Assembly: GCF_038396635.1 (NCBI RefSeq)
Contig: NZ_CP121687.1
Span: 1,116,001-1,180,000, forward strand
DNA from: Defluviitalea saccharophila
Lineage (GTDB): Bacteria > Bacillota > Clostridia > Lachnospirales > Defluviitaleaceae
DNA: 64,000 nucleotides
Direction of reading: 5' to 3'
The translations under genes and the position numbers were made by a program. Positions 426 to 41,644 of the stretch are shown in pieces; position 1 is the first letter of the stretch, and each line of letters opens with the position of its first letter. Under the pieces are notes generated by a model that was given only the letters and a program-made list of their open reading frames with translations, was not told the origin of the DNA and did not search any database.

Positions 426-668
426 ATGAAAGCCATATACATACCTTTAAATAAAGTTAAAACAGGTCAAACCTGCATCGTTCAAGATCTAAAAGCAACA
501 GGAACTCAAAGAAGAAGAATGCTGGATTTAGGCTTTATCAAAGATACTGAAGTAAAAGTAATGCGCCGCAGCCCTTTGGGAGATCCTACGGCTTATTTGA
601 TTCGAGACACCATCATTGCTTTACGAAAAGAAGAAGCCTCAAAAATCCTTGTAAAAGTCAATAGTTGA
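426..668 (+). CDS. feoA: FeoA, ferrous iron transport accessory protein
   Basis: An 80-residue SH3-like FeoA protein. It carries the family pattern around TGTQRRRMLDLGFIKDTEV and ends with a RDTIIALRKEEAS segment. FeoA is a small cytoplasmic partner of the FeoB Fe2+ permease. An in-frame ATG at 366 and another at 420 exist, but the AAGGAG at 411-416 lies 9 nt before the ATG at 426 and only 3 nt before 420, and 80 aa is the family size. The stop is 14 nt before the feoB GTPase start, so it is the first gene of a feoA-feoB(N)-feoB(C) operon. Confidence 0.92.
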   Translation: MKAIYIPLNKVKTGQTCIVQDLKATGTQRRRMLDLGFIKDTEVKVMRRSPLGDPTAYLIRDTIIALRKEEASKILVKVNS

Positions 669-682
669 CAGGAGGTGTCCTT

Positions 683-1450
683 ATGGGATTAACTTGCAGT
701 TCCTGCAAAAAAAAATCCATTGTAGATTTATATCATGTTGAAAAAACATCCAGCAATCAAGTGATTGTTGCCCTGGCAGGAAATCCTAATACCGGTAAGA
801 GCACCATATTTAACGAACTGACCGGGTTAAAGCAGCATACGGGAAATTGGCCCGGCAAAACCGTAACAAATGCAAAAGGATTCTACGCAAGAAAAGACAA
901 AGAATTTATTTTGGTCGATCTCCCGGGAACCTATTCTCTCTTTGCCAATTCTGTTGAGGAAGAAGTTGCAAGGGATTTTATATGCTTTGCAAAACCCGAT
1001 GCCACTATTGTCGTTGTAGATGCTACCTGTCTGGAAAGAAACTTAAATCTGGCTCTTCAAGTCATGGAAATCACCGATAATGTTATTCTTTGCGTGAATC
1101 TTTTAGATGAAGCAGAGAAAAAACACATTCAAATAGATTTAAAAAAACTTTCAAACGAACTGGGCATCCCCGTAGTAGGAACGGTTGCAAGAAACCGAAA
1201 GGGCTTAGAAGTCCTGATGGATACTGTTTATAACGTATGCACCAAAAAAATTATTCCCAAACCAAAACCTATGATCTACCCTGAAGCTATTGAAACGGAA
1301 CTCCAAAAAATTCTTTCAATGATTGAACCCTTAGTGCCAAGTGGCTTTAATCCCAGATGGATTGCCCTGAGATTGCTTGACGGGGATACGGATATTTTAG
1401 ATAAAATTACACATTATGCTGATTGTAAAGGAGCGTGTTATCATGCATAA
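683..1450 (+). CDS. feoB: FeoB GTPase-domain protein (N-terminal half of a split FeoB)
   Basis: A 255-residue protein carrying the FeoB G domain: G1 GNPNTGKST (about residues 31-39), G3 DLPGTYSL, G4 NLLDE and a G5-like TVARNRKGL, followed by the start of the GDI region. It begins with a short CSSC Cys pair. The start at 683 is set by AGGAGG at 670-675. Canonical FeoB continues from here into the membrane permease; this ORF stops and the permease is a separate overlapping ORF (8-nt overlap). The protein probably gates Fe2+ uptake by the downstream membrane protein. Annotated clostridial genomes contain comparable stand-alone FeoB GTPase proteins, so I regard the split as real rather than as an error. 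Confidence 0.88.
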   Translation: MGLTCSSCKKKSIVDLYHVEKTSSNQVIVALAGNPNTGKSTIFNELTGLKQHTGNWPGKTVTNAKGFYARKDKEFILVDLPGTYSLFANSVEEEVARDFICFAKPDATIVVVDATCLERNLNLALQVMEITDNVILCVNLLDEAEKKHIQIDLKKLSNELGIPVVGTVARNRKGLEVLMDTVYNVCTKKIIPKPKPMIYPEAIETELQKILSMIEPLVPSGFNPRWIALRLLDGDTDILDKITHYADCKGACYHA

Positions 1451-2795
1451 CGAAAACAAAATAAGCTCCTCCGATATATTTAGGGATGATATCGTAACAT
1501 CAATCTATAACCGGGCAAAGGAAATCTCAGAAGCTGTAGTCAACACCCCCAAACACAAAACCTTCGATTGGGATAATAAATTGGATGATATTTTAACCTC
1601 AAAATGGACCGGGTTCCCCATTATGCTTTTGATCCTTTGTTTTGTTTTTTGGTTGACTATCGTAGGTGCTAATATTCCATCTGCCATGCTTTCCAGGATT
1701 TTATTTTGGATTGAAGACAAATTAACCGAAATCTTTATATTTTTTGATGCCCCTTCCTGGCTCCACGGTATTTTAGTTCTTGGTATGTACCGTACTGGCG
1801 CATGGGTAGTATCGGTTATGCTACCCCCTATGGCTATTTTCTTCCCCTGTTTTACCCTTTTAGAAGACTTTGGCTATTTGCCAAGAGTTGCTTTTAACTT
1901 GGATCGATTGTTTAAAAAAGCCGGAACCCATGGAAAACAGGCTCTTACCATGGCGATGGGGTTTGGCTGTAATGCAGCAGGGGTCGTTGCCTGTCGTATT
2001 ATCGATTCCCCAAGAGAAAGACTGATTGCCACTCTAACAAATAATTTCGTGCCTTGCAACGGCAGATTCCCTACCCTTATTGCACTATCTATGATATTGA
2101 TAGGCGCAACTGTTCATTCTCCTTTTGTGTCTTTTTTGACCTCCGGAATCGTTATTCTCCTTGTATTATCCGGGATAGCAGTTACTTTCATTGTGTCGTA
2201 CATTTTATCTAAAACCATATTAAAAGGAACGCCCTCCACATTTAATTTAGAACTGCCTCCTTATAGAAGACCTCAAATTGGTAAGGTGATTGTAAGATCT
2301 ATATTTGACAGAACTTTATTCGTTCTCGGCCGTGCGGTGAGTGTTGCCCTGCCTGCCGGTGCCATTACCTGGCTGGTGGCCAATATAATGATAGGAGATG
2401 CCAGTATTTTAAATCATATTTCTGGTTTCTTAGACCCTTTTGGAATAGCCATAGGATTGGACGGAGTGATTATTCTTGCTTTTATTCTTGGATTGCCTGC
2501 CAATGAAATTGTATTGCCCATTATTTTTATGAGTTATCTGTCAAAAGGCGCTATGATTGAACTCGATACCATTGAAGAAATGAGAAATGTTTTTATATCC
2601 AATGGCTGGACCTGGCTTACTTGTTTAAATGTCATGCTGTTCTCATTGTTCCATTTTCCCTGCGGCACTACTCTATGGACAATAAGAAAAGAAACTCAGA
2701 GTTTAAAATGGACCGTGGCGTCATTTATAATTCCAACAATTGTTGCAATCATTGTATGTTTTAGTACCACCAGAATTGTCTATTGGTTCATATAA
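1443..2795 (+). CDS. feoB: FeoB membrane permease (C-terminal half of a split FeoB)
   Basis: A 450-residue polytopic membrane protein with the FeoB transmembrane and nucleoside-recognition (Gate) regions. Diagnostic stretches are MGFGCNAAGVVACRIIDSPRE (a conserved Cys in the FeoB core), a VPCNGRFPTL segment and a late FHFPCGTTLWTIRKE segment. Together with the preceding gene it gives about 705 residues, the size of an intact FeoB. The start at 1443 is supported by AAAGGAG about 8 nt upstream, inside the end of the GTPase gene, which implies translational coupling. The role is Fe2+ import across the cytoplasmic membrane. Confidence 0.9.
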   Translation: MHNENKISSSDIFRDDIVTSIYNRAKEISEAVVNTPKHKTFDWDNKLDDILTSKWTGFPIMLLILCFVFWLTIVGANIPSAMLSRILFWIEDKLTEIFIFFDAPSWLHGILVLGMYRTGAWVVSVMLPPMAIFFPCFTLLEDFGYLPRVAFNLDRLFKKAGTHGKQALTMAMGFGCNAAGVVACRIIDSPRERLIATLTNNFVPCNGRFPTLIALSMILIGATVHSPFVSFLTSGIVILLVLSGIAVTFIVSYILSKTILKGTPSTFNLELPPYRRPQIGKVIVRSIFDRTLFVLGRAVSVALPAGAITWLVANIMIGDASILNHISGFLDPFGIAIGLDGVIILAFILGLPANEIVLPIIFMSYLSKGAMIELDTIEEMRNVFISNGWTWLTCLNVMLFSLFHFPCGTTLWTIRKETQSLKWTVASFIIPTIVAIIVCFSTTRIVYWFI

Positions 2796-30612: not shown

Positions 30613-31362
30613 ATGAAAAAGTTTAATCACCTACGGCTAAAATATTTAGTTGGATTTCTGATAATACTGCTTTTAAATGGCTCGATCTTATATGCAGAGA
30701 TAAATGAATCTAATAAAGTTTCCAAAACTAATATTGTTTTATCTTCTACATGGGGTATAGTGAATCAAGATTGTATTAATATAAGACAATATCCTGATTC
30801 GAATGCAAAAATTCTAGGTACAGCCAATAAAAAGGATGTCCTTATTGTCACAGGCAAATATAAAAAGTGGTATCGAATCCGATATAAGAATAAATCTGCC
30901 TGGATTTATGCTCAGTATCTGGAAGGATACAATATCCCATTCATACGAGAAATCATTCCGATGACAAAAGAAGAAATCTTAAGAAGAGAAATTGTCCATT
31001 ATGCAAAGCAGTTTATCGGAACTCCCTATTGCTATGGTGGGACCGATTTAAGAAAAGGGGTGGACTGCTCCGGTTTTACCCGGGCGGTTATGCAAAACTT
31101 CGGCATTTCTATACATAGAACTTCCAGCGGTCAATTTCATAACGGAACCATCGTCAAAAAAGCAGATTTAAGCCCTGCCGACCTGGTATTCTTTGATACT
31201 TCCGGAAGAAATAACGGTAAAATATCTCATGTGGGGTTGTATATAGGCAACGATAAATTTATTCATGCGACCACCACAAAAGGCGTAAAGATAGATGATT
31301 TATCCCAAGGTTATTACAAAAGAACCTATGTATTGGCTGCATCAGTAATTGATGAAAAATAA
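30613..31362 (+). CDS. Secreted SH3b-NlpC/P60 peptidoglycan endopeptidase
   Basis: 249 residues: a signal peptide or anchor (about 10-30, YLVGFLIILLLNGSILYAE), one bacterial SH3 domain (about 50-110, GIVNQDCINIRQYPDSNAKILG), and an NlpC/P60 domain (about 130-245). The catalytic residues are the Cys in VDCSGF, the His in SHVGLY and a third polar His in FIHAT. These enzymes cut gamma-D-Glu-meso-Dpm or similar stem-peptide bonds in the cell wall. AGGAGG 6 nt upstream sets the start. It stands just before the putative spore-surface locus; a role in spore wall remodelling is inference. Confidence 0.9.
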   Translation: MKKFNHLRLKYLVGFLIILLLNGSILYAEINESNKVSKTNIVLSSTWGIVNQDCINIRQYPDSNAKILGTANKKDVLIVTGKYKKWYRIRYKNKSAWIYAQYLEGYNIPFIREIIPMTKEEILRREIVHYAKQFIGTPYCYGGTDLRKGVDCSGFTRAVMQNFGISIHRTSSGQFHNGTIVKKADLSPADLVFFDTSGRNNGKISHVGLYIGNDKFIHATTTKGVKIDDLSQGYYKRTYVLAASVIDEK

Positions 31363-31460: not shown

Positions 31461-31489
31461 AACATCTTTAGAAATGAATTCATATACTA
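31461..31489 (+). promoter_or_regulatory. Sigma-K-like promoter of the three-gene paralog operon
   Basis: AACA at 31461-31464, 16 nt, CATATACTA at 31481-31489. This fits the sigma-K pattern (AC at -35, CATAnnnTA at -10). It lies about 25 bp before the ribosome binding site of the first gene. Confidence 0.65.
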
Positions 31490-31527
31490 TATTACAAAAT
31501 ATTTGTCCATAGAAAGGAGGATAATAG

Positions 31528-32036
31528 ATGTCTCAACTTTTACAATGTATTTTTGGAAAACTCCTCGATTTTGCTTTTGATGTATTAAGACCCAATGTTA
31601 CAAACAGTGACAGTCCCAGAGTTCCCATCCGATTTACATCTTCAAGTGAGGAAAAATACTATCCAGTATTACGGTGGACGTTCATGAAAAAAATACAGCA
31701 GTTTGGTTATTTGGAACAATAGGTTTTTTGGTAAATACAGTTATTTTCCCTGGCTCCCTCACATTTAATATTTGGAGAGGAAAACCGTATAAAGGTCAAC
31801 TCATTTTTAGTACTACCGACACAGCTCAAGGAGGAAGAGAGACCAGCATTGGCTTTGACCCTACTTTTCGTAATACCAGCTTTACAGCTACTGACTTCTT
31901 TAAAAATAAGCATTGTAATAAAGTCACGTACTATCTTACAGTTACTTCACAATTAACTTCTGATCCCGAAGATCCGATTGATGTTAGACTCATTGGTCCT
32001 ATCACATTTCTTGCCGGTACGATCCAAAATAAATAA
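31528..32036 (+). pseudogene. Family A paralog 1 (putative spore-surface protein), frameshifted
   Basis: First of three tandem paralogs. Translation from the ATG at 31528 (AAAGGAGG upstream) matches paralogs 2 and 3 up to about residue 48 (SPRVPIRFTSSS...EEKYYPVL). It then leaves the frame and stops at 31722. The remainder of the family match (DVHEKNTAVWLFGTIGF ... VRLIGPITFLAGTIQ) continues in another frame from about 31674 to 32036. Restoring a single base near 31669-31674 gives an alignment without gaps at this point: 13 residues between the conserved K and AVWL in both copies 1 and 2. So it is a one-base deletion, in the genome or in the assembly. No slippery sequence is present. Function unknown. 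Confidence 0.75.
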
Positions 32037-32071
32037 CTCTTATATAATTCTTTATCGAAAGGAGGATGCAT

Positions 32072-32548
32072 ATGTCACTACAATTCGATTTTGATAAACT
32101 CAGAAATTTTGCATACGATACCCTAAAACCAAATATTTCAGACAGTACGGATTCAAGAGTTCCTATTCACCTTACAAGTACAACAGGAGAAAAGCTTTTA
32201 TCCACTATTACACTTCCTCTTGAAAATCAAAAAGCTGCAGTATGGTTAAGTGCTACCATTGGATTTAGAGTAAATTCCCCTGTTCCCTCTCAACCTCCGT
32301 CTGCAATGCGTTTTAGGATATGGAGAGGGCAACCTGATACGGGTACCCTGGTTTATAGCACCACGGACAGTGGTCAAGGGGGGGACTCCTTTGGCTCTGT
32401 TTCTCGCACAACCAATCTCAATCATATAGATATTATAAAAACCCCTTGTAAATCTGTAACCTATACTTTAACCGTAGAAGCCTTTGATATCGTAAGCATA
32501 AGCATTATTGGACCCATCACATTTACAGCTGCAGAAATTGAGCTGTAA
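32072..32548 (+). CDS. Family A paralog 2, putative spore-surface beta-sandwich protein
   Basis: 158 residues with no recognised named domain. The N-terminus is FDFDKLRNFAYDTLKPNISDS; then come alternating hydrophobic strands, a conserved AVWLSATIGF, a FRIWRGQPDTGTLVYSTTD-type segment with GQGG, and a VTYTLTVEA...IIGPITFTAAEI end. Strand pattern and size are reminiscent of small jelly-roll (C1q-like) exosporium proteins of Bacillus, but this is only resemblance. GGAGG lies 6 nt before the ATG at 32072. No signal peptide or Cys cluster. It follows paralog 1 by 35 bp and is probably transcribed from the same sigma-K-like promoter. Confidence 0.7.
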   Translation: MSLQFDFDKLRNFAYDTLKPNISDSTDSRVPIHLTSTTGEKLLSTITLPLENQKAAVWLSATIGFRVNSPVPSQPPSAMRFRIWRGQPDTGTLVYSTTDSGQGGDSFGSVSRTTNLNHIDIIKTPCKSVTYTLTVEAFDIVSISIIGPITFTAAEIEL

Positions 32549-32583
32549 TGGACATTTAAAATCCCTAGAAAGGAGGTTAAAAG

Positions 32584-33051
32584 ATGTTTAACACTTTTAT
32601 AATTCAATTCGATAAGTTAATCCATTTCGTATTTGATAAATTAAATCCCAATATCAGTAATAGCACAGATCCAAGAGTTCCAATAGTACTGGCACCGGAT
32701 AGTGGTCCAAAGCTTTTATCTGCTATAGAAGTACCTATAGAAAAAAAAGAATCCATTGTTTGGTTAAGTGCTACCATAGGGACTTTCGTAGAAGATTCAA
32801 TTAATCCTTCCAGACTCATTTTTACCATTCTGCGAGGAAATCCAAATACTGGAAATATTGTATTCAGTACTGCTGATTCCGGTCAGGGAGGTCCTACCTA
32901 TCGAACATCTACTTTCACCCATGTGGATCAAATTAAAAATTACCCTTCTTCCAAAGTCACCTATTACCTCACAGTTCAAGCCGTTGATAATAGTTCAAAT
33001 ATAAATATCGTAGGTCCTATAAGCTTTAACGGAGCCACAATAAAAAAATAA
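32584..33051 (+). CDS. Family A paralog 3, putative spore-surface beta-sandwich protein
   Basis: 155 residues, clearly homologous to paralog 2: FDKLIHFVFDKLNPNISNSTD, RVPIVL, SIVWLSATIG, a LRGNPNTGNIVFSTADSGQGG region (given by its outline), VTYYLTVQAVD and INIVGPISFNGATI. Shared differences between copies are spread along the whole length, so the duplications are not recent. AAAGGAGG precedes the ATG. It is the last gene before a bidirectional terminator. Function unknown; the context suggests a spore coat or exosporium component. Confidence 0.7.
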   Translation: MFNTFIIQFDKLIHFVFDKLNPNISNSTDPRVPIVLAPDSGPKLLSAIEVPIEKKESIVWLSATIGTFVEDSINPSRLIFTILRGNPNTGNIVFSTADSGQGGPTYRTSTFTHVDQIKNYPSSKVTYYLTVQAVDNSSNINIVGPISFNGATIKK

Positions 33052-33079
33052 GCGGGAGCTTTCCCGCTTATTTTTTTAT
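33042..33079. terminator. Bidirectional terminator after the family A operon
   Basis: A 10-bp stem (33048-33057 with 33062-33071) with an A7 run before and T7 run after. It serves the + strand family A genes and the - strand family B gene. Confidence 0.88.
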
Positions 33080-33102
33080 TAGATGATGTGTACTTCAAAA
33101 AT

Positions 33103-33660
33103 TTATTCCGGATCTATACAAGAGAATACATTAAGAGGTATGCCTTCAGTAGGATCTCCCCCTACTAAATAAGCACGAACTGCAACTCTTGTTCCTTCCT
33201 CTGGCGTAACAAGTACCGGATAGGTAAAGTTCGTTTGATAGTCCACAACATTGCCTTCAGAATCTGGATTCGCTGCTACTAATGTGTTTAATACGTTAAA
33301 GGTTATGCCATCATATGTTCCAATCTCAACAATAATACCTTGAGGGGGATCGTCTGGACTAATAAAGTATGCGTGAATACCGGTAATCCTTACTGGTTGA
33401 CCATCGGCATATTCTACAAATCCATTGGAAGCGAATTCGCCTGCAGCAGTACAATTCGGAATAGCATCGAAAAGATCTTCCAGAAGCATATAGATGTCTC
33501 CTTCTGGCGAAAGAGTAGTATTGATGCTACATAGTAAGTCAATAATAGATTGGTCATTGCATTGTTCTGGATCGCCTAAAGCTTCCATGACTGCTTGCAG
33601 CCATCCCTTTAAGCCTTCACCGCAATCTCCCGTACAGAATCTTAATGGATTTTTTTTCAT
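33103..33660 (-). CDS. Family B paralog 1, putative spore-surface protein
   Basis: 185 residues, unknown family. The N-terminal part is helical with Cys residues (RFCTGDCGEGLKGWLQAVMEAL, LLCSINTT); the C-terminal half is strand-rich (ITGIHAYFISPDDPPQGIIVEIGTYDG, YQTNFTYPVLVTPEEG, AVRAYLVGG). It aligns along its C-terminal half with the gene at 34333-34842: KIHA/GIHA, YxTxFxxPxLV, VEV/VAV and a late Cys. No signal peptide. It is acidic overall. A clear sigma-K-like promoter lies upstream and GGAGGA precedes the ATG. Confidence 0.68.
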   Translation of the reverse strand: MKKNPLRFCTGDCGEGLKGWLQAVMEALGDPEQCNDQSIIDLLCSINTTLSPEGDIYMLLEDLFDAIPNCTAAGEFASNGFVEYADGQPVRITGIHAYFISPDDPPQGIIVEIGTYDGITFNVLNTLVAANPDSEGNVVDYQTNFTYPVLVTPEEGTRVAVRAYLVGGDPTEGIPLNVFSCIDPE

Positions 33661-33716
33661 TAAATCTCCTCCTTTTTAAAATTATAAATATTGTGTTAGA
33701 CAATTTCTACTTACTA

Positions 33717-33746
33717 TAGTCTATGAAAGCATTCCATTAGAAGTGC
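33717..33746 (-). promoter_or_regulatory. Sigma-K-like promoter of family B paralog 1
   Basis: On the minus strand GCAC at 33746-33743, 17 nt, CATAGACTA at 33725-33717, about 40 bp before the ribosome binding site. Confidence 0.65.
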
Positions 33747-33854
33747 CTTATTAGTACATTTTTCAGCAAATCTCCAGTAATGACTACATATTTTTTGATG
33801 ATCTCTCTTGATGTTTCGTGCTTATCTTATATACTTTTTTATCTTTGGATTCCG

Positions 33855-34180
33855 TTAATGCTTTTTATTGCTTTTCATCTCCTTTAAATCCATTTTTAAT
33901 TGGTTAAATAATTTTTCTGCCATATTCATTTTTTGAAGGATTGTAATAAATTCATCGAGAAGCCTTTGTAGCTCTGATATGTCTTGCACTACCTCTTCTT
34001 CTAATTCTTCTGGTTCTTTTGTAAATTTTTCTTCCTCTTCTTGCAGCCGCAGGTCTTTTTTTTTACTTCTTTTGGCTCCAGTAAAGTCTTTTCGGCTTTC
34101 TTTCGAAGAGCTTGCTCAATAAAGTCTTCTTTTCTTCTAGACAATTGATAGGAGCCTTTTGGGGATTTTTCTATTTTCAA
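33855..34180 (-). CDS. Small coiled-coil protein needing a -1 frameshift (108 aa)
   Basis: A gene easily missed because no single frame covers it. From a TTG at 34180 (AAGGGAG 8 nt upstream) frame 0 gives 42 residues (KIEKSPKGSYQLSRRKEDF... to ...KEVKKK). It then reaches A9-G at 34064-34055, which is read GTA AAA AAA AAG. Continuing in frame 0 stops after 17 more Lys-rich residues. A -1 shift at A AAA AAG instead joins a 66-codon frame ending at 33855 that is strongly helical and acidic (DLRLQEEEEKF..., ISELQRLLDEFITILQKM). A TGGAG lies 12 nt before the A-run, similar to the SD stimulator at dnaX. It could be programmed frameshifting, RNA polymerase slippage, a mutation or a homopolymer error. 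Own sigma-K-like promoter. Confidence 0.65.
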
Positions 34181-34215
34181 AGTACCATCTCCCTTCTATA
34201 CTTTTTTAGCTACTA

Positions 34216-34245
34216 CATACTATGCACTTTGTCCTTTTGAAGTTC
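34216..34245 (-). promoter_or_regulatory. Sigma-K-like promoter of the small coiled-coil gene
   Basis: On the minus strand GAAC at 34245-34242, 17 nt, CATAGTATG at 34224-34216, about 20 bp before the ribosome binding site. Confidence 0.6.
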
Positions 34246-34274
34246 TATTTTTCGACAACTTTTTTATCTTTTTA

Positions 34275-34310
34275 CAAAAGAAAAAGAATAGTCCGTGGGC
34301 TATTCTTTCA
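34275..34310 (-). terminator. Terminator after family B paralog 2
   Basis: An approximately 12-bp stem (AAAGAATAGTCC with GGGCTATTCTTT) and a T-rich stretch on the minus strand follow the stop codon by about 20 bp. Confidence 0.75.
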
Positions 34311-34332
34311 AAAGATATTTTTAATTAAGGTA

Positions 34333-34842
34333 TTAGTCAATACAATCTTTCTTACAATATACAACAGTTAAAGTACCATATCTGCTCGTTGGAACAAATA
34401 CTCCTCCGGTTGTTGTATAGAAAGCAAGTTCTACTTCTACAGGGCCTTTTACCAACAATGGATGAACAAAGGTTGTTTCGTATCTTTCAACTCCAAGGGT
34501 GATAAGATCATCTCCAAAGCCATCTTGGAAAACAATATTGCCTTCTCTATCTCTAACTGTAATAACTGCAAAATCAACAGGCGGTTCTACTGTGTCTGCA
34601 AATTCAAAAAATGCTGCATGGATTTTTGTAAGTAATACTTTATCTTCTTCAATATCCAATGTAAGCGTAGGCGTTGCAGTGTCTATACTATTCACTGATT
34701 GGGAAACAGAAACGCAAGTTCCTTTTATTTTACTGAGTTTGCACAATAGTCCGCAGCAGCAGTTCTTTAATACCTCTCTTATTGCTTCTAATTGTTGTGG
34801 GATATTTTTTTCTTTGCCCTTATTGCAGCCACCATCTCTCAT
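34333..34842 (-). CDS. Family B paralog 2, putative spore-surface protein
   Basis: 169 residues. The N-terminal third is basic and Cys-rich (NCCCGLLCKLSKIKGTC), followed by a strand-rich domain (LLTKIHAAFFEFADTV, FAVITVRDREGN, YETTFVHPLLVKGP, VEVELAFYTT) and a Cys-containing tail (VVYCKKDC). The strand-rich part aligns with the gene at 33103-33660. The CCC cluster suggests disulfide or metal cross-linking, common in spore coat proteins. No signal peptide. A sigma-K-like promoter lies about 45 bp upstream and GGAGGA precedes the ATG. Confidence 0.68.
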   Translation of the reverse strand: MRDGGCNKGKEKNIPQQLEAIREVLKNCCCGLLCKLSKIKGTCVSVSQSVNSIDTATPTLTLDIEEDKVLLTKIHAAFFEFADTVEPPVDFAVITVRDREGNIVFQDGFGDDLITLGVERYETTFVHPLLVKGPVEVELAFYTTTGGVFVPTSRYGTLTVVYCKKDCID

Positions 34843-34885
34843 ATAAATCCTCCTTTTAAATAAATTTTAGAGTTTTGCTTCACTA

Positions 34886-34914
34886 TATCTTATGAAATAG
34901 TTTTTAAGAAAGTT
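34886..34914 (-). promoter_or_regulatory. Sigma-K-like promoter of family B paralog 2
   Basis: On the minus strand AAC at 34914-34912, 17 nt, CATAAGATA at 34894-34886. It is a full match to CATAnnnTA. Confidence 0.65.
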
Positions 34915-34936
34915 ACAAAATCCGATATTCTTCAAT

Positions 34937-34970
34937 AAAAGTTCTCCTGTTTCTGCAGGAGAACTTTTTT
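34937..34970 (-). terminator. Terminator after family C paralog 1
   Basis: An 11-bp stem (34939-34949 with 34956-34966), with T-rich flanks in both directions. It lies about 14 bp beyond the stop of the gene at 34984. Confidence 0.85.
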
Positions 34971-34983
34971 GAACAAAGGATTC

Positions 34984-35814
34984 TTACTCTTCGTCTTCAT
35001 CACAAGCCTTACGTACTGGAACGTCGTCTATACATCCAAGATCTTCTTTTTGTGGAGGATTGAAAATTTCAAATGGGAAATCCATACTTTCAAATACGTC
35101 ACATGGATTAAGCGGAGAAACCTCTGCACATTCGTTTGGTTTGCAGAAACCTTTAGATTCAACCAGTAAGTTTACTAATCGGAATAACTTAATAATGGAG
35201 AATAATCCTATGGTAAGATTAATATCGTTCAATGCACCCTCAATACAGTCGCATCCTAAGGAGTTTACACAGCCATTCAAGTTAGAATCCAATAATACTG
35301 CTTTTGATTCAACCAATACATATGGTGCTTCCTCTAATACATGGGATTCTGGTTGGAATAAATTGCTTGCAATGGTAATTTCAGAACCTTCGCTTCCAAA
35401 GAGTAATACTGCTTTCTTGAATGTTGTTCCTGCTTCGATAAATTCTCTTTCAACAGTATCGTATCTTAGTATAATTGGGCATCCTTCTGAATTTAAGAAT
35501 GCAAGTTTGAATTTGAAGATGTACTTCACATGTACATTATAATATTTTGGTCTGAAAGCATCCTGCTTTCTGTCGGTTTCGATTTTATATAGTTTGAAAT
35601 CTTTAACTACAATATCTGTAGCTCCTGAAGGTACATTAATAGGTGATCCTTTTCCTGCAGCAATTACTTGCCCGCTTTCAGTTGTAATTGTCTGGCATTC
35701 CATTGAAAAAGGTCTTTCCAGCATTTCAGGTGTCAGGCAATCTTGTTGTCTACATTGGTCGTATACTTTTAATGCTATAATACACTCATCTTTTACTCTG
35801 CTATATGCAGCCAT
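34984..35814 (-). CDS. Family C paralog 1, Cys-rich putative spore coat protein
   Basis: 276 residues, no recognised domain. The N-terminus (KVYDQCRQQDCLTPEML) carries paired Cys. The middle is strand-rich (INVPSGATDIVVKDFKLYKI, YYNVHVKYIFKFKLAF), weakly recalling the SPOCS/DUF3794 pattern of spore coat morphogenetic proteins. The C-terminus has KGFCKPNECAEVSPLNPC and an acidic tail (ACDEDEE). It aligns with the gene at 36015-36956 over the region IGLxxxIKxxxxVxxxxxxKGxCxPxxC. There is no signal peptide, in keeping with assembly from the mother cell. A sigma-K-like promoter is upstream. Confidence 0.7.
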   Translation of the reverse strand: MAAYSRVKDECIIALKVYDQCRQQDCLTPEMLERPFSMECQTITTESGQVIAAGKGSPINVPSGATDIVVKDFKLYKIETDRKQDAFRPKYYNVHVKYIFKFKLAFLNSEGCPIILRYDTVEREFIEAGTTFKKAVLLFGSEGSEITIASNLFQPESHVLEEAPYVLVESKAVLLDSNLNGCVNSLGCDCIEGALNDINLTIGLFSIIKLFRLVNLLVESKGFCKPNECAEVSPLNPCDVFESMDFPFEIFNPPQKEDLGCIDDVPVRKACDEDEE

Positions 35815-35875
35815 ACTATTTCCCCCTTTAATTAGGTTTTAGGATAAGGACTAAGTTTATGGTTTCTCTCACTAC

Positions 35876-35904
35876 CATAATATGTGATGTTAAAAATTGT
35901 GTTC
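35876..35904 (-). promoter_or_regulatory. Sigma-K-like promoter of family C paralog 1
   Basis: On the minus strand GAAC at 35904-35901, 16 nt, CATATTATG at 35884-35876. Confidence 0.6.
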
Positions 35905-35980
35905 CATTATGTAAGGAAAATTTAATTCAGCAAGGAAACGACTACATCGTAAGTAAGACGAACTTTCATATTTTAAGAGC

Positions 35981-36009
35981 AAAACGCCTCCGGCTAGGAG
36001 GCGCTTTTT
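35981..36009 (-). terminator. Terminator after family C paralog 2
   Basis: A 7-bp GC-rich stem (35985-35991 with 35997-36003) flanked by AAAA and TTTTT directly follows the stop codon at 36015. Confidence 0.8.
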
Positions 36010-36014
36010 GAACC

Positions 36015-36956
36015 TTATCGTTTTTTCGGACATTCTTCTGCTGGAGTTGGGTCTTCAACTTCACAGAAACCATGCTTAATCGTTTTTGGCTTGCAGCATA
36101 ATTCCAATGGTTGAATACTTTGTTCGAGAAGATCTCCTTCAACAAAGTCAAGGCATGCATTTTCTGGTTCAATATCAACTGGAATGCATTTTGGTGGTAC
36201 GCAAAGTCCTTTATGAGGAATCTTGTATTGTACAAAGTAAATGGACTTGATATAAAGGGTTAATCCAATGGCTGCACTTAAAGAATCCACATCTAGATTA
36301 ACAACTTTTGCTAATGCCTGAACAACAATGCCTTGACGAAGTGCATTATTTCCATGGTCTCCATCTTCAACAAAGCCTAAGAAGCTGATCACAGGTTCGC
36401 ATTCGCATTTGAGCTTGTAAGAAACACCATATGGTGCATATACATCTATAGCAACGGAAACTGGATTGGTTTCATTATCGAAGTATGGATCTTCTTCGTC
36501 TCCTGGTAAATATTGAATTGTGAAGCATTCTTCTGCAATCACTCTGCAGTTTCGATCAATTACCTTCGCAGCAAAGGTAACGTCTATTTGTGAAAGGGTA
36601 ACTCTTACACAGTTCGGTCTGCGAATTAACGTTTCAACATTGGACCCGTTATCCTTTCCGAAATTAAAATCAATGTCAATAACACGAAGTTCGATTCCTG
36701 CAACATCGTCTCTTTCAAAATCTACATCATCGAAAATTTTGTCTAAGTTGTCAACAACTCTGCAAAGATTGATTCCACATTCATCAAATACAACCGGCGC
36801 TACAATAGTCAATAACTTTGGTTCACCCAATGGGGGACATACACATGCGTCTTCAGCCGGATTGATTGCTTCATCCGGTTTACATACTGGGCATTCGCCA
36901 GTGATAGGTCTTTGGAATATTCTGCCTCTAACTTGATTGTTACCACAACATGCCAT
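36015..36956 (-). CDS. Family C paralog 2, Cys-rich putative spore coat protein
   Basis: 313 residues starting MACCGNNQ (start fixed by AAGGAGGG; the frame is open 13 codons further). The N-terminal 50 residues hold several Cys pairs (ACC, CPVC, CVCPP). The middle is beta-rich, and the C-terminal third has KGLCVPPKC, NACLDF, ELCCKPK, GFCEVE and EECPKKR. Its C-terminal half aligns with the gene at 34984-35814, so the two arose by duplication. Cys spacing suggests cross-linked structural proteins. No enzyme motif is seen. Confidence 0.7.
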   Translation of the reverse strand: MACCGNNQVRGRIFQRPITGECPVCKPDEAINPAEDACVCPPLGEPKLLTIVAPVVFDECGINLCRVVDNLDKIFDDVDFERDDVAGIELRVIDIDFNFGKDNGSNVETLIRRPNCVRVTLSQIDVTFAAKVIDRNCRVIAEECFTIQYLPGDEEDPYFDNETNPVSVAIDVYAPYGVSYKLKCECEPVISFLGFVEDGDHGNNALRQGIVVQALAKVVNLDVDSLSAAIGLTLYIKSIYFVQYKIPHKGLCVPPKCIPVDIEPENACLDFVEGDLLEQSIQPLELCCKPKTIKHGFCEVEDPTPAEECPKKR

Positions 36957-36992
36957 AAAAAATTCCCTCCTTAAAGAAATTAATTTCAATAC

Positions 36993-37021
36993 CATATTAT
37001 GTGAAAATTGTCGATGTTGTT
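36993..37021 (-). promoter_or_regulatory. Sigma-K-like promoter of family C paralog 2
   Basis: On the minus strand AACA at 37021-37018, 16 nt, CATAATATG at 37001-36993. Confidence 0.62.
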
Positions 37022-37025
37022 ACTA

Positions 37026-37055
37026 AACATAAATAAGAAGTTTTGGAATATATAT
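37026..37055 (+). promoter_or_regulatory. Possible sigma-K-like promoter of family D paralog 1
   Basis: AACA at 37026-37029, 17 nt, AATATATAT from 37047. The -10 has A instead of the first C, so this is a weak candidate. It lies back to back with the promoter of the divergent gene. Confidence 0.3.
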
Positions 37056-37087
37056 AATATGATAAAGAAATTTTAGGAGGTTTTCCT

Positions 37088-38482
37088 ATGGCTTGTTTTT
37101 TGAAACTTCGGGACCAAAGCTTAATTCTTGTGGATTTTAATATACGGAACGGTTTATATTATCAAGTTTTCAGAAAGGATCAGCCCTCTCGCCCAAATCT
37201 GCTGCTGTCCAATGGAACCCATGAATATACTGCATTTTTAGACGAAAAAAATAACTTTCACGTGATTGCTAAGAATACGAGAAATCAAATCATACACCTT
37301 AAAGAAAGTGCTGATAAAATTACAAAAGAAGTTTTACTGGATGATCCAAATAATACATTTAAGATAGACAATATTTACGCCATCTCCGTAAAAAATCAAA
37401 TTCATCTTTTTTATTACGCAGATCATCCATCCACCAAAACACCGGAACTGATTTATCATTTGGTCAATGACCCTCTAGCTGCACCAAGGCCTATTGAAAC
37501 CCTTTACAGCCGCAGTATCAATTACGATTGTATCCGAAATAATGGTGATCTTTATTTAGCTGTAATCGTTAAGAAAGAGGATACCTACTCTATAGACCTT
37601 AAACATTTTGAGGACTATAAAGACTTATCGCTTCAAACTTCTACCCCAGTGTCCTCAGAGTTTCCTATCGTATACTGTAAAGTATGTATGGATAAAAACG
37701 GAATCTTGCATTTGATTTATCTTCAGGAACAGTATGGCAAGTTTCAGCTGATACATAAATGCAAAGATAGGGAATGGTCAAAAGAAAATCTGCTTTATTC
37801 CTGCGGGTATCCCATTAAACCGATTATCTTTATATATAATGATGCTTTATGGATTAACTGGAATGAAAATGGCATCATTAAAGCTATTTTATCCGTCGAT
37901 CATGGAAACAGTTTTTCAAAACCAATTCGAGCTTCCATAGAAGATCCTGATATAAGTCTTCATTCTTATGATGCTGAGCCAGAAGCATCCCCCTCACTTA
38001 TTTGTAATCAATTATACGGCGTGACTTACCCCACTCCAAAGTTTGCAGTGCTTCATAGCTTAGATATGGATGGAATCCATTTTAATATGACGCCTAATAC
38101 GGAACTTCAGCTATATCTGAATGCTATTAAAAATGCACTCAATCTTTCTGTTTCAAAATCAGCCCTAGAAGAGGAAAATATTAATCTTAAACATGAAATC
38201 CTTGAGCTTAATCAAATCCAAAGGGATATTACAAACCAATATAACGAACTTGCGGAACTAACGAAGAGAATCCAAGAGGAAGGAAAGAAATGGAGAGAGC
38301 TATATTTTAAAGGAAAAACAGAAATAGATTTTTATAAAAAAAGAGTTAAGCAGTTAGAAAAGTCTTTATCTTCAACTTCTCAAGACTCTGCTGTGGAGAA
38401 GCCGGAACCCAAAGAAGAAAACAATGTGATAGAGTCAGAACAACCTATTCCTCAAGAGTCAGGTGCTTCTGAGGATGAATAG
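37088..38482 (+). CDS. Family D paralog 1, Asp-box beta-propeller with C-terminal coiled coil
   Basis: 464 residues. The N-terminal 330 are repeated four-stranded blade-like units (FLDEKNNFHVIAKN, YAISVKNQIHLFYY, CMDKNGILHLIYLQ), with one BNR/Asp-box-like motif SVDHGNSFSKP (S-x-D-x-G-x-S/T-F) as in sialidase-type propellers. Residues about 355-435 form a coiled coil (LEEENINLKHEILELN, LAELTKRIQEEGKKW), and the tail is acidic. No signal peptide and no sialidase catalytic residues are evident. It shares length, plan and sequence with the gene at 40136-41644. AGGAGG precedes the ATG. Structural or adhesive role at the spore surface is inference. Confidence 0.68.
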   Translation: MACFLKLRDQSLILVDFNIRNGLYYQVFRKDQPSRPNLLLSNGTHEYTAFLDEKNNFHVIAKNTRNQIIHLKESADKITKEVLLDDPNNTFKIDNIYAISVKNQIHLFYYADHPSTKTPELIYHLVNDPLAAPRPIETLYSRSINYDCIRNNGDLYLAVIVKKEDTYSIDLKHFEDYKDLSLQTSTPVSSEFPIVYCKVCMDKNGILHLIYLQEQYGKFQLIHKCKDREWSKENLLYSCGYPIKPIIFIYNDALWINWNENGIIKAILSVDHGNSFSKPIRASIEDPDISLHSYDAEPEASPSLICNQLYGVTYPTPKFAVLHSLDMDGIHFNMTPNTELQLYLNAIKNALNLSVSKSALEEENINLKHEILELNQIQRDITNQYNELAELTKRIQEEGKKWRELYFKGKTEIDFYKKRVKQLEKSLSSTSQDSAVEKPEPKEENNVIESEQPIPQESGASEDE

Positions 38483-40135: not shown

Positions 40136-41644
40136 ATGACAAAAGAAAGAGAAAATTACTATATCATAAAACAGAGTAAAGGGACATTATGGGCTTTTTT
40201 CTATGATCATAAAGATGGGATTTGCTGTACGACTTATACTTATGATGCCTGGTCCAATAGGCAAATCATCTTTAAGGACGGAACTAAAAATTTCTCTGTA
40301 TATCTTGATAACAGCGATCAAATACATATATTTTGTCAGGACACTTCAGGCAATATCCTATTGTATCGATATACTTCTAACGAATGGAAATCTGAAATAC
40401 TTTTATACAGTAAAACTGGATTCCTGGATTCTTTACACTTTGATGCCATCATTCAAGGGGAAGACTTATTCCTATTTTATAATTTGAAAGATCCTAACAA
40501 TAACAGACATGCTTTAGTTCAACAAGTAGCTGTAAAAGGTACCCATTGGAATACACCTTCCCTCATTGATTACATTGAACCCCTGGGGCATCAGCCATTT
40601 TCCGTTTATAGAGATTCTAACAATCATATACTCCTTTTTTATCAAAAGGTGCAGGACGGATGTCAGTTAGGATATAAAAAATACTCTCAAAATATGAATA
40701 CCTGGAGTAATTTCTACCCCTTCGATGAAAACAGACTTTCCTTTGGTGATGAATCCATATTATTAAATAACCAAAATATTCAGTGTCTGTATATCAAGAA
40801 AGAAAAGCACTACTCCACATTATTCTATAGATTTAAAAACGAATCCAAATGGGAAACACCCCAAAAGCTCTTTGAAAAAGCAGAAATCAGCTCATGTTCT
40901 TTGTTTATGATTGACGACCATCTATGGGCGGCCTGGATATCGGACGGTAAATTGTACAGCTGCTATTCCACCGATTGGGGACAGACCTTCTCAAATCCTT
41001 CTGTCCATTTTAGCGACAGGCCGACACAGCCTGTTAAAGCTTCCTATCAAAGCAATTTTCTCCAGGAGCAAAAACGCTTGCGTGCCAATAAAATCTATAT
41101 CCGCCCGGATGAACAAATAGAGTTTTTAATTATTCCCGATGTTTTTCCTATCATCTCTGGAAAATCGGCTCCATTAGAGGATACATTTATTCCTGTAACC
41201 GATAAAGTAGACAATTACCTCAATGAAATAAAAATGCATATGAATGAAGTATATGAAGAAATCTATATATGCAAAAAACAATTAAGAGAAAAAGAACATC
41301 AAATCGCTCAGCTGAAATATACCCTCAAAACAAAAAATCAAGACTTGTCCAGAATAACCTATGAGCTGAATAAAGCAAATGAAGCCCATAAAAAAGAATT
41401 GCTGAGTTTAAAAGAAAAGAACAAAAGCCTGGAAAAAGAATTACAGCAAAAAAATAATGAAATAAAAGTATTGGAAGAAAAAATCATTGCACAGAGAAAA
41501 GGGATGAATATTTTAAAGCAAGAACTGGAAGTCAGAAAAGCACCATTAATTATTACTGCCAATGAGGAGGCAAATTCTTCAAGGCAGAATAAGACTTCGC
41601 TTCTTAGACGAATTTTCAGTTTTGAAGATGAACATATAAATTAA
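40136..41644 (+). CDS. Family D paralog 2, Asp-box beta-propeller with C-terminal coiled coil
   Basis: 502 residues with the same plan as the gene at 37088-38482. Blade-like repeats (SVYLDNSDQIHIFCQD, FSVYRDSNNHILLFYQK) carry an Asp-box STDWGQTFSNP, then a linker, then a long coiled coil (about 365-470, KKQLREKEHQIAQLKYTL, SLEKELQQKNNEIKVLEEK) and a short basic end. No signal peptide. AGGAGG precedes the ATG. Its stop overlaps the stop of the convergent gene by 4 nt. I could not assign a sporulation promoter. Function unknown. Confidence 0.68.
   Translation: MTKERENYYIIKQSKGTLWAFFYDHKDGICCTTYTYDAWSNRQIIFKDGTKNFSVYLDNSDQIHIFCQDTSGNILLYRYTSNEWKSEILLYSKTGFLDSLHFDAIIQGEDLFLFYNLKDPNNNRHALVQQVAVKGTHWNTPSLIDYIEPLGHQPFSVYRDSNNHILLFYQKVQDGCQLGYKKYSQNMNTWSNFYPFDENRLSFGDESILLNNQNIQCLYIKKEKHYSTLFYRFKNESKWETPQKLFEKAEISSCSLFMIDDHLWAAWISDGKLYSCYSTDWGQTFSNPSVHFSDRPTQPVKASYQSNFLQEQKRLRANKIYIRPDEQIEFLIIPDVFPIISGKSAPLEDTFIPVTDKVDNYLNEIKMHMNEVYEEIYICKKQLREKEHQIAQLKYTLKTKNQDLSRITYELNKANEAHKKELLSLKEKNKSLEKELQQKNNEIKVLEEKIIAQRKGMNILKQELEVRKAPLIITANEEANSSRQNKTSLLRRIFSFEDEHIN

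What the first reader, a model, noticed from the sequence alone, without database searches (positions are those of the whole stretch)
31461..37087. A locus of unfamiliar genes carrying sigma-K-like promoters: probable new spore-surface gene cluster
Six transcription units (before 31528, 33660, 34180, 34842, 35814 and 36956) each have AAC or a close variant, 16-17 nt, then CATAnnnT(A/G), within about 20-60 bp of the ribosome binding site. This is seen directly. It matches the known mother-cell sigma-K pattern, and such repetition on both strands in 6 kb is unlikely by chance. Gene products lack signal peptides, and several are Cys-rich, as in coat/exosporium proteins. I recognise none as a named coat protein, so this may be an undescribed clostridial spore-envelope locus.
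Basis: partly seen in the sequence, partly recalled or inferred. Interest (0 to 1): 0.75.

Follow-up and report, generated by a model that had tools for sequence, protein, structure and literature searches.

The report
Sigma-K spore-surface gene cluster in Defluviitalea
This stretch of a digester bacterium's genome carries a cluster of unnamed genes that are almost certainly switched on late in spore formation and probably build the spore's outer shell, and two of them belong to previously unannotated protein families found in most of its spore-forming relatives.

Summary
All six promoter-like sites exist, 35-61 bp before six start codons: five strict sites where 0.27 are expected in shuffled DNA and 0.28 from the genome-wide rate.

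Comparative evidence makes them sigma-K promoters. Upstream of gene D, 38 of 39 distinct homologues across many families carry the -10 box, all with the sigma-K-specific AC exactly 16/17 nt before it. For gene C it is 23 of 25; for control genes 18 of 400.

D occurs in 25 of 74 genomes with SpoIVA and in 0 of 22 without. C is order-wide. Outside the window's own family C and D never co-occur (38 C only, 18 D only, 0 both), and together they cover 63 of 74 SpoIVA+ genomes. C lies beside spoIVA in three sampled genomes.

No product matches Pfam or NCBIfam. The three tandem A genes are predicted TNF/C1q-like jelly rolls, the fold class of Bacillus exosporium protein BxpB/ExsF. E1/E2 carry no recognisable sigma site. 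A1 is frameshifted here.

Best reading: a sigma-K-driven spore-envelope cluster, with an old Cys-rich core (C, D) and young family-specific extras (A, B). Spore location is inferred, not shown. D is also kept in live-bearing Epulonipiscium viviparus.

The parts
31461..31489 (+). sigma-K-type promoter of the A1-A2-A3 run: AACATCTTTAGAAATGAATTCATATACTA
   Evidence: equivalent site before the first A gene in L033 and L034
31528..32036 (+). A1, TNF/C1q-like jelly-roll protein gene, frameshifted in this genome (ORFs 31528-31722 and 31674-32036)
   Evidence: intact 169-aa copy in same-species genome G425
32066..32548 (+). A2, 160 aa, paralogue of A1/A3
32584..33051 (+). A3, 155 aa; predicted TNF/C1q-like jelly roll (pLDDT 78.5)
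33103..33660 (-). B1, 185 aa; Cys-containing N-terminus plus C-terminal domain homologous to that of B2
33717..33745 (-). sigma-K-type promoter of B1: CACTTCTAATGGAATGCTTTCATAGACTA
   Evidence: also in L032
34001..34180 (-). s34, 59-aa Lys-rich small protein, TTG start, poorly conserved
34216..34244 (-). sigma-K-type promoter of s34: AACTTCAAAAGGACAAAGTGCATAGTATG
34333..34842 (-). B2, 169 aa, Cys-rich N-terminus plus C-terminal domain shared with B1
34886..34914 (-). sigma-K-type promoter of B2: AACTTTCTTAAAAACTATTTCATAAGATA
   Evidence: similar sites in L031, L032 and L035
34984..35814 (-). C, 276 aa, Cys-rich; member of an order-wide unannotated family (90 of 196 order genomes)
35876..35903 (-). 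sigma-K-type promoter of C: AACACAATTTTTAACATCACATATTATG
   Evidence: conserved in 23 of 25 C homologues
36015..36956 (-). D, 313 aa, 20 Cys; central beta domain 47-247 predicted mostly with high confidence, no PDB match
36993..37021 (-). sigma-K-type promoter of D: AACAACATCGACAATTTTCACATAATATG
   Evidence: conserved in 38 of 39 distinct D upstream regions
37088..38482 (+). E1, divergent partner of D: probable propeller-like domain with an Asp-box-type motif, plus C-terminal coiled coil
   Evidence: no sigma-K or other known sigma motif
40136..41644 (+). E2, paralogue of E1, beyond citrate synthase

Best explanation
This is a mother-cell, sigma-K-driven gene cluster for the outer layers of the endospore in a Defluviitalea-type bacterium. 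After engulfment, sigma-K RNA polymerase would transcribe at least six units here (shown only as conserved promoters). The products have no signal peptides, so they would be made in the mother-cell cytoplasm and assembled on the outer face of the forespore (inferred). C and D are the conserved, slowly evolving, Cys-rich proteins and probably form a disulfide-linked structural layer. Across the order C and D replace one another, so they probably do the same job (inferred from mutual exclusion). A1-A3 are predicted TNF/C1q-like jelly rolls, probably trimers, and with the Cys-tailed B1/B2 would make a faster-evolving, family-specific outer decoration. E1/E2 (probable propeller plus coiled coil) are conserved partners whose own regulation is not identified.
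For: Sites are enriched locally. Footprint: the -10 is found in 38/39 D and 23/25 C upstream regions, every one with AC at spacer 16/17, against 18/400 controls; the AC position was not imposed in this test. Spacer bases vary while AC and CATA...T hold. A model built from the known consensus puts 36/39 D promoters above the 95th percentile of 318 controls (p 2e-23) and raises the A/B/C promoters as a group (p 2e-7); sigma-A, F, G and H models do not distinguish them, and the sigma-E model only weakly. C. difficile sigma-K promoters are defined by AC at -35, against ATA for sigma-E, with near-identical -10 boxes (PMC3789822). A sigma-K gene above the curated cut-off is in this genome. D is in 25/74 SpoIVA+ and 0/22 SpoIVA- genomes, p 6e-4. 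C or D is in 63/74 SpoIVA+ and 4/22 SpoIVA- genomes, p 1e-8; outside family f1 no SpoIVA+ genome has both, p 4e-9. C lies next to spoIVA in L187, L188 and L189 and divergent to an E gene in L186. A fold hits include Bacillus anthracis BxpB (8d02) and ExsF (9h3d). Selection is strong on D and C and weaker on A and B. The genus sporulates (PMC5817277).
Against: There are no expression, proteomic or localisation data. Sigma-K also drives non-structural genes such as enzymes and germination proteins (general knowledge). D is kept, with its promoter, in Epulonipiscium viviparus (L075), which makes live offspring instead of spores (PMC3416734), so a strict coat role is not guaranteed. E1 shows no sigma-K or sigma-E signature. 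The TNF-like fold also matches lectins and viral proteins. Distribution tests are phylogenetically non-independent, though within families f9 and f23 D is missing wherever SpoIVA is missing. Four genomes with C lack a full SpoIVA; they are draft genomes, two of them with SpoIVA fragments.
Confidence: 0.78

Rival explanations
1. The genes are sigma-K-regulated but not structural: mother-cell proteins acting in late development, for example mother-cell lysis, germination or release of offspring.
For: Sigma-K regulons include enzymes. D is retained in viviparous Epulonipiscium viviparus, whose type-B lineage has sigK but few late spore genes (PMC3416734).
Against: No signal peptides, no enzyme family match, low-complexity Cys-rich tails in C homologues, exosporium-type fold class for A, fast-evolving tandem paralogues.
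Confidence: 0.15
2. The promoters are sigma-E rather than sigma-K promoters, since the two -10 boxes are nearly the same.
For: CATANNNT is shared by both sigma factors (PMC3789822). The A/B/C group scores slightly above controls with the sigma-E model (p 0.001).
Against: AC sits at exactly 16/17 nt in every conserved site although it was not required. No D upstream region exceeds the 95th percentile of controls for sigma-E (0 of 39).
Confidence: 0.05
3. Chance run of AT-rich motifs upstream of ordinary genes of unknown function.
For: The pattern is not enriched genome-wide (147 sites against 178 reversed-control sites).
Against: Local excess of about 18-fold; conservation across tens of genomes with spacer turnover.
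Confidence: 0.02

Closest known systems
Sigma-K-regulated coat/exosporium genes of Bacillus subtilis and Clostridioides difficile
   Same: Promoter architecture (AC, 16-17 nt, CATANNNTA), several separate units, Cys-rich products without signal peptides; sigK present in the genome
   Different: None of the proteins matches a named coat or exosporium family in Pfam or NCBIfam; no expression evidence here
BxpB/ExsFA and the TNF/C1q-like domain of BclA (Bacillus exosporium)
   Same: Predicted fold of A3 matches BxpB (8d02, E 3.7e-4) and ExsF (9h3d, E 6.6e-4) with TM-scores about 0.5
   Different: No sequence match to any PDB chain; better fold hits are the Pgp3 C-terminal domain and TNF-like lectins; no collagen repeats seen
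F-ENA / DUF4183 endospore appendages
   Same: Small beta proteins on spore surfaces, known also in Clostridia (PMC11952670)
   Different: No DUF4183 or other Pfam match in A or B proteins; no fibre evidence
PLL/DUF346 and BNR beta-propeller lectins
   Same: E1/E2 profile weakly matches PLL2 (6rfz, E 0.002); one E homologue matches BNR_2 weakly; an Asp-box-like SxDxGxSF motif is conserved
   Different: All matches are below curated cut-offs; added C-terminal coiled coil; sugar binding untested

Membership tests
Sigma-K regulon | -35 AC and -10 CATANNNTA with 16-17 nt spacing near the gene start | tested here: met
   conserved across families
Sigma-K regulon | sigK gene in the genome | tested here: met
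   G000:C1:527644-528288, 347 bits, over cut-off
Sigma-K regulon | Expression in the mother cell that depends on sigma-K | not testable with these tools
   needs a sporulation time course and a sigK mutant
Spore-envelope protein | Restricted to genomes with a sporulation programme | tested here: met
   D 25/74 SpoIVA+ and 0/22 SpoIVA-; C or D 63/74 and 4/22, the four being drafts
Spore-envelope protein | Present in purified spores | not testable with these tools
   no proteome available
Named coat/exosporium families with Pfam or NCBIfam models | Match above the curated cut-off | tested here: not met
   no match for A, B, C or D
BxpB/BclA-type TNF/C1q-like domain | Jelly-roll fold of the TNF/C1q class | tested here: met
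   prediction only (A3)
BxpB/BclA-type TNF/C1q-like domain | Sequence homology to the family | tested here: not met
   no PDB chain up to E 5
F-ENA appendage | DUF4183 domain | tested here: not met
C and D as one superfamily | Significant profile-profile similarity | tested here: inconclusive
   collinear over 211 columns, E 0.008 but probability 5%
Beta-propeller lectin (E1/E2) | Propeller repeats above a curated threshold | tested here: inconclusive
   weak PLL2 and BNR_2 matches

The most novel reading that the evidence does not exclude
C and D are two mutually displacing branches of the main structural spore-envelope protein of the whole order (GTDB Lachnospirales by inference), a lineage whose coat assembly is largely undescribed. 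D has been kept under purifying selection in Epulonipiscium viviparus, where the former spore shell would now envelop live offspring.
Probability: 0.35. Interest if true: 0.78.

Novelty: new variant of a known kind. Interest (0 to 1): 0.62.

Why it matters
Coat and exosporium proteins of most gut and digester Clostridia are unknown. A 2012 survey reports that clostridia lack CotE, SpoVID and SafA and that other firmicutes' coats probably contain still unidentified proteins (PMC3533761). C and D together mark 63 of 74 SpoIVA-bearing genomes sampled in this order, have no Pfam or NCBIfam family, and come with a conserved regulatory signature. That makes them direct candidates for spore proteomics, for genomic markers of sporulation, and for asking what became of the spore shell in Epulopiscium, whose retained late genes are an open question (PMC3416734).

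Tried and rejected
(1) By eye, E1 upstream regions looked like sigma-E promoters. A sigma-E model scored them no higher than controls (median 4.4 against 5.4), and sigma-A, F, G, H and K models also failed, so that idea was dropped. (2) A genome-wide excess of the strict motif was looked for and not found; only the local cluster and its conservation count. (3) Homology of A with B was tested and not found; B1 and B2 are homologous in their C-terminal domains. (4) Homology of C with D is suggestive only. (5) The D model has a confident core, but its PDB matches are all poor (best E 0.006, TM-scores of at most about 0.3), so no fold is claimed. (6) Sequence searches of solved structures with A, B, C and D profiles gave nothing useful. 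(7) No D homologue was found in the plasmid collection.

Full report
Setting. The window is G000:C1:1116001-1180000 of a 3.01-Mb, 99% complete single-contig genome. Record L051, from a public MAG, encodes an identical D protein. The named relatives are Defluviitalea phaphyphila, Vallitalea, Cellulosilyticum, Niameybacter and Epulopiscium. I infer a Defluviitalea-clade organism in GTDB order Lachnospirales; the names come from the records, the order name from general knowledge. Defluviitalea species form terminal spores (PMC5817277).

Anatomy. Left to right: A1 (frameshifted), A2 and A3 run on + behind one promoter. B1, s34, B2, C and D run on -, each behind its own promoter. E1 is on +, divergent from D, and its paralogue E2 lies beyond citrate synthase. 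None of A, B, C or D matches Pfam or NCBIfam even at E 1. Cysteines: D 20, C 13, B2 8, B1 6, A 0-1.

Observation. All six sites are real and lie 35-61 bp upstream of start codons. Five strict sites in 5.7 kb compare with 0.27 per shuffle and 0.28 from the genome-wide density. Genome-wide the strict pattern is not in excess of its reversed control (147 against 178), so a bare match elsewhere means little. Among strict sites elsewhere that precede gene starts, several stand before coat-like genes: a DUF346 propeller-lectin protein, a Gly/Tyr-rich protein, two paralogous small Asn-rich proteins with Cys-containing tails, and a pair of short genes. Others precede ordinary genes.

Phylogenetic footprint. 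D homologues were collected from 25 of 96 relatives and from public records. Across 39 distinct D upstream regions, 38 carry the site. The exception, L086, is a shortened ORF matched only from query residue 28. In a version of the test that required only the -10 box, 38 of 39 D and 23 of 25 C upstream regions had it, and in every one AC stood at 16 or 17 nt (peak at 17 for D, at 16 for C). Among 400 control genes, 60 had a -10 match and 18 had AC at those spacings. Spacer bases vary freely between families. With consensus-based models D scores far above controls for sigma-K only. C. difficile data separate sigma-K (AC) from sigma-E (ATA) by the -35 element (PMC3789822). The control sets include some neighbouring cluster genes, which only lowers the contrast.

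Distribution. Using SpoIVA (TIGR02836) as marker, 74 of 96 genomes have a match over the cut-off. D is in 25 of these and in none of the other 22 (Fisher p 6e-4). Families f9 and f23 contain both states, and D is missing wherever SpoIVA is missing. In a sample of 341 genomes of the class only one besides the window's genome has a D match. The E family is in 45 of 96, 43 of them SpoIVA+. C is in 90 of 196 order genomes. Outside the window's family no SpoIVA+ genome has both C and D: 38 have C only, 18 D only, 11 neither (p 4e-9). One very weak C match in G043 (E 0.005), a D genome, was not counted. Together C and D are in 63 of 74 SpoIVA+ and 4 of 22 SpoIVA- genomes. These counts are not phylogenetically independent. 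C is encoded beside spoIVA in three of twenty loci examined, and in L186 it takes D's place opposite an E gene. hhalign of broad C and D profiles is collinear but weak (E 0.008, probability 5%), so common descent is open.

Structures. D: central beta domain within 47-247 at high confidence apart from residues 177-206, disordered Cys-rich ends, no meaningful PDB match. A3: pLDDT 78.5, with TNF/C1q-class matches: Pgp3 C-terminal domain, TNF-like lectins, Bacillus anthracis BxpB and ExsF. The exosporium matches are not the top hits and TM-scores are about 0.5, so the fold class is supported and the exosporium link is only suggestive. E1/E2: weak PLL2 and BNR_2 matches plus coiled coil.

Evolution. 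D and C evolve slowly (95% and 92% identity to G001; dN/dS about 0.05-0.07), A and B faster (about 0.2-0.3). A and B are essentially confined to the window's family within the order; A-like domains recur in 8 of 348 genomes sampled across the phylum. A conserved base layer with variable outer parts is the ordinary pattern for spore coats. The order-wide core without any database family is the unusual part.

Epulopiscium. D is intact with its sigma-K site in Candidatus Epulonipiscium viviparus (L075), whose D upstream site is identical to that of G072 (L050). G072 also has sigK and SpoIVA. The published analysis of this lineage found sigK retained, cotJB/cotJC absent and 17 of more than 75 late-stage proteins retained (PMC3416734). 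D comparisons within Epulopiscium give low dN/dS (0.04-0.17), but synonymous sites are near saturation, so this shows only that the protein is constrained.

Shown and inferred. Shown: the sites, their conservation, the distribution, sigK and SpoIVA presence, absence of family matches. Predicted: the A fold. Inferred: sigma-K dependence in vivo, mother-cell assembly, disulfide layer, division of labour between C/D and A/B.

Noticed in passing
window 31528-32036: A1 is frameshifted here but intact in a genome of the same species (G425:C58:14874-15374): a strain-specific lesion or a sequencing error.
   Followed up: yes
window about 37026-37062, upstream of E1: A conserved element, CATAAA(T)-N13-AATATA, lies upstream of E1 in the family and matches no known sigma class when scored; E1 regulation is unexplained.
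   Followed up: partly
G000:C1:50555 (L091): A strict sigma-K-type site 31 bp before a 428-aa DUF346/PLL-type propeller-lectin gene: another probable spore-surface gene of this genome.
   Followed up: partly
G000:C1:687100 (L109), 1342461 (L134), 1665513 (L125), 1426889 and 1429611 (L133): Strict sigma-K-type sites before small Asn/Gly/Cys-containing unannotated proteins that look like coat proteins; L109 and L134 are paralogues.
   Followed up: partly
window 30613-31362: NlpC/P60-like gene adjacent to the cluster and kept there in the family relatives examined (L031-L036), although the A/B genes vary.
   Followed up: no
L036 (G005): In this family member D is split into two ORFs and A, B and C are missing from the locus; no C match was found in its genome either.
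   Followed up: partly
window 665-2795: A FeoB-like iron transporter appears to be encoded as two overlapping ORFs (665-1450 G domain, 1416-2795 membrane part); assignment by eye.
   Followed up: no
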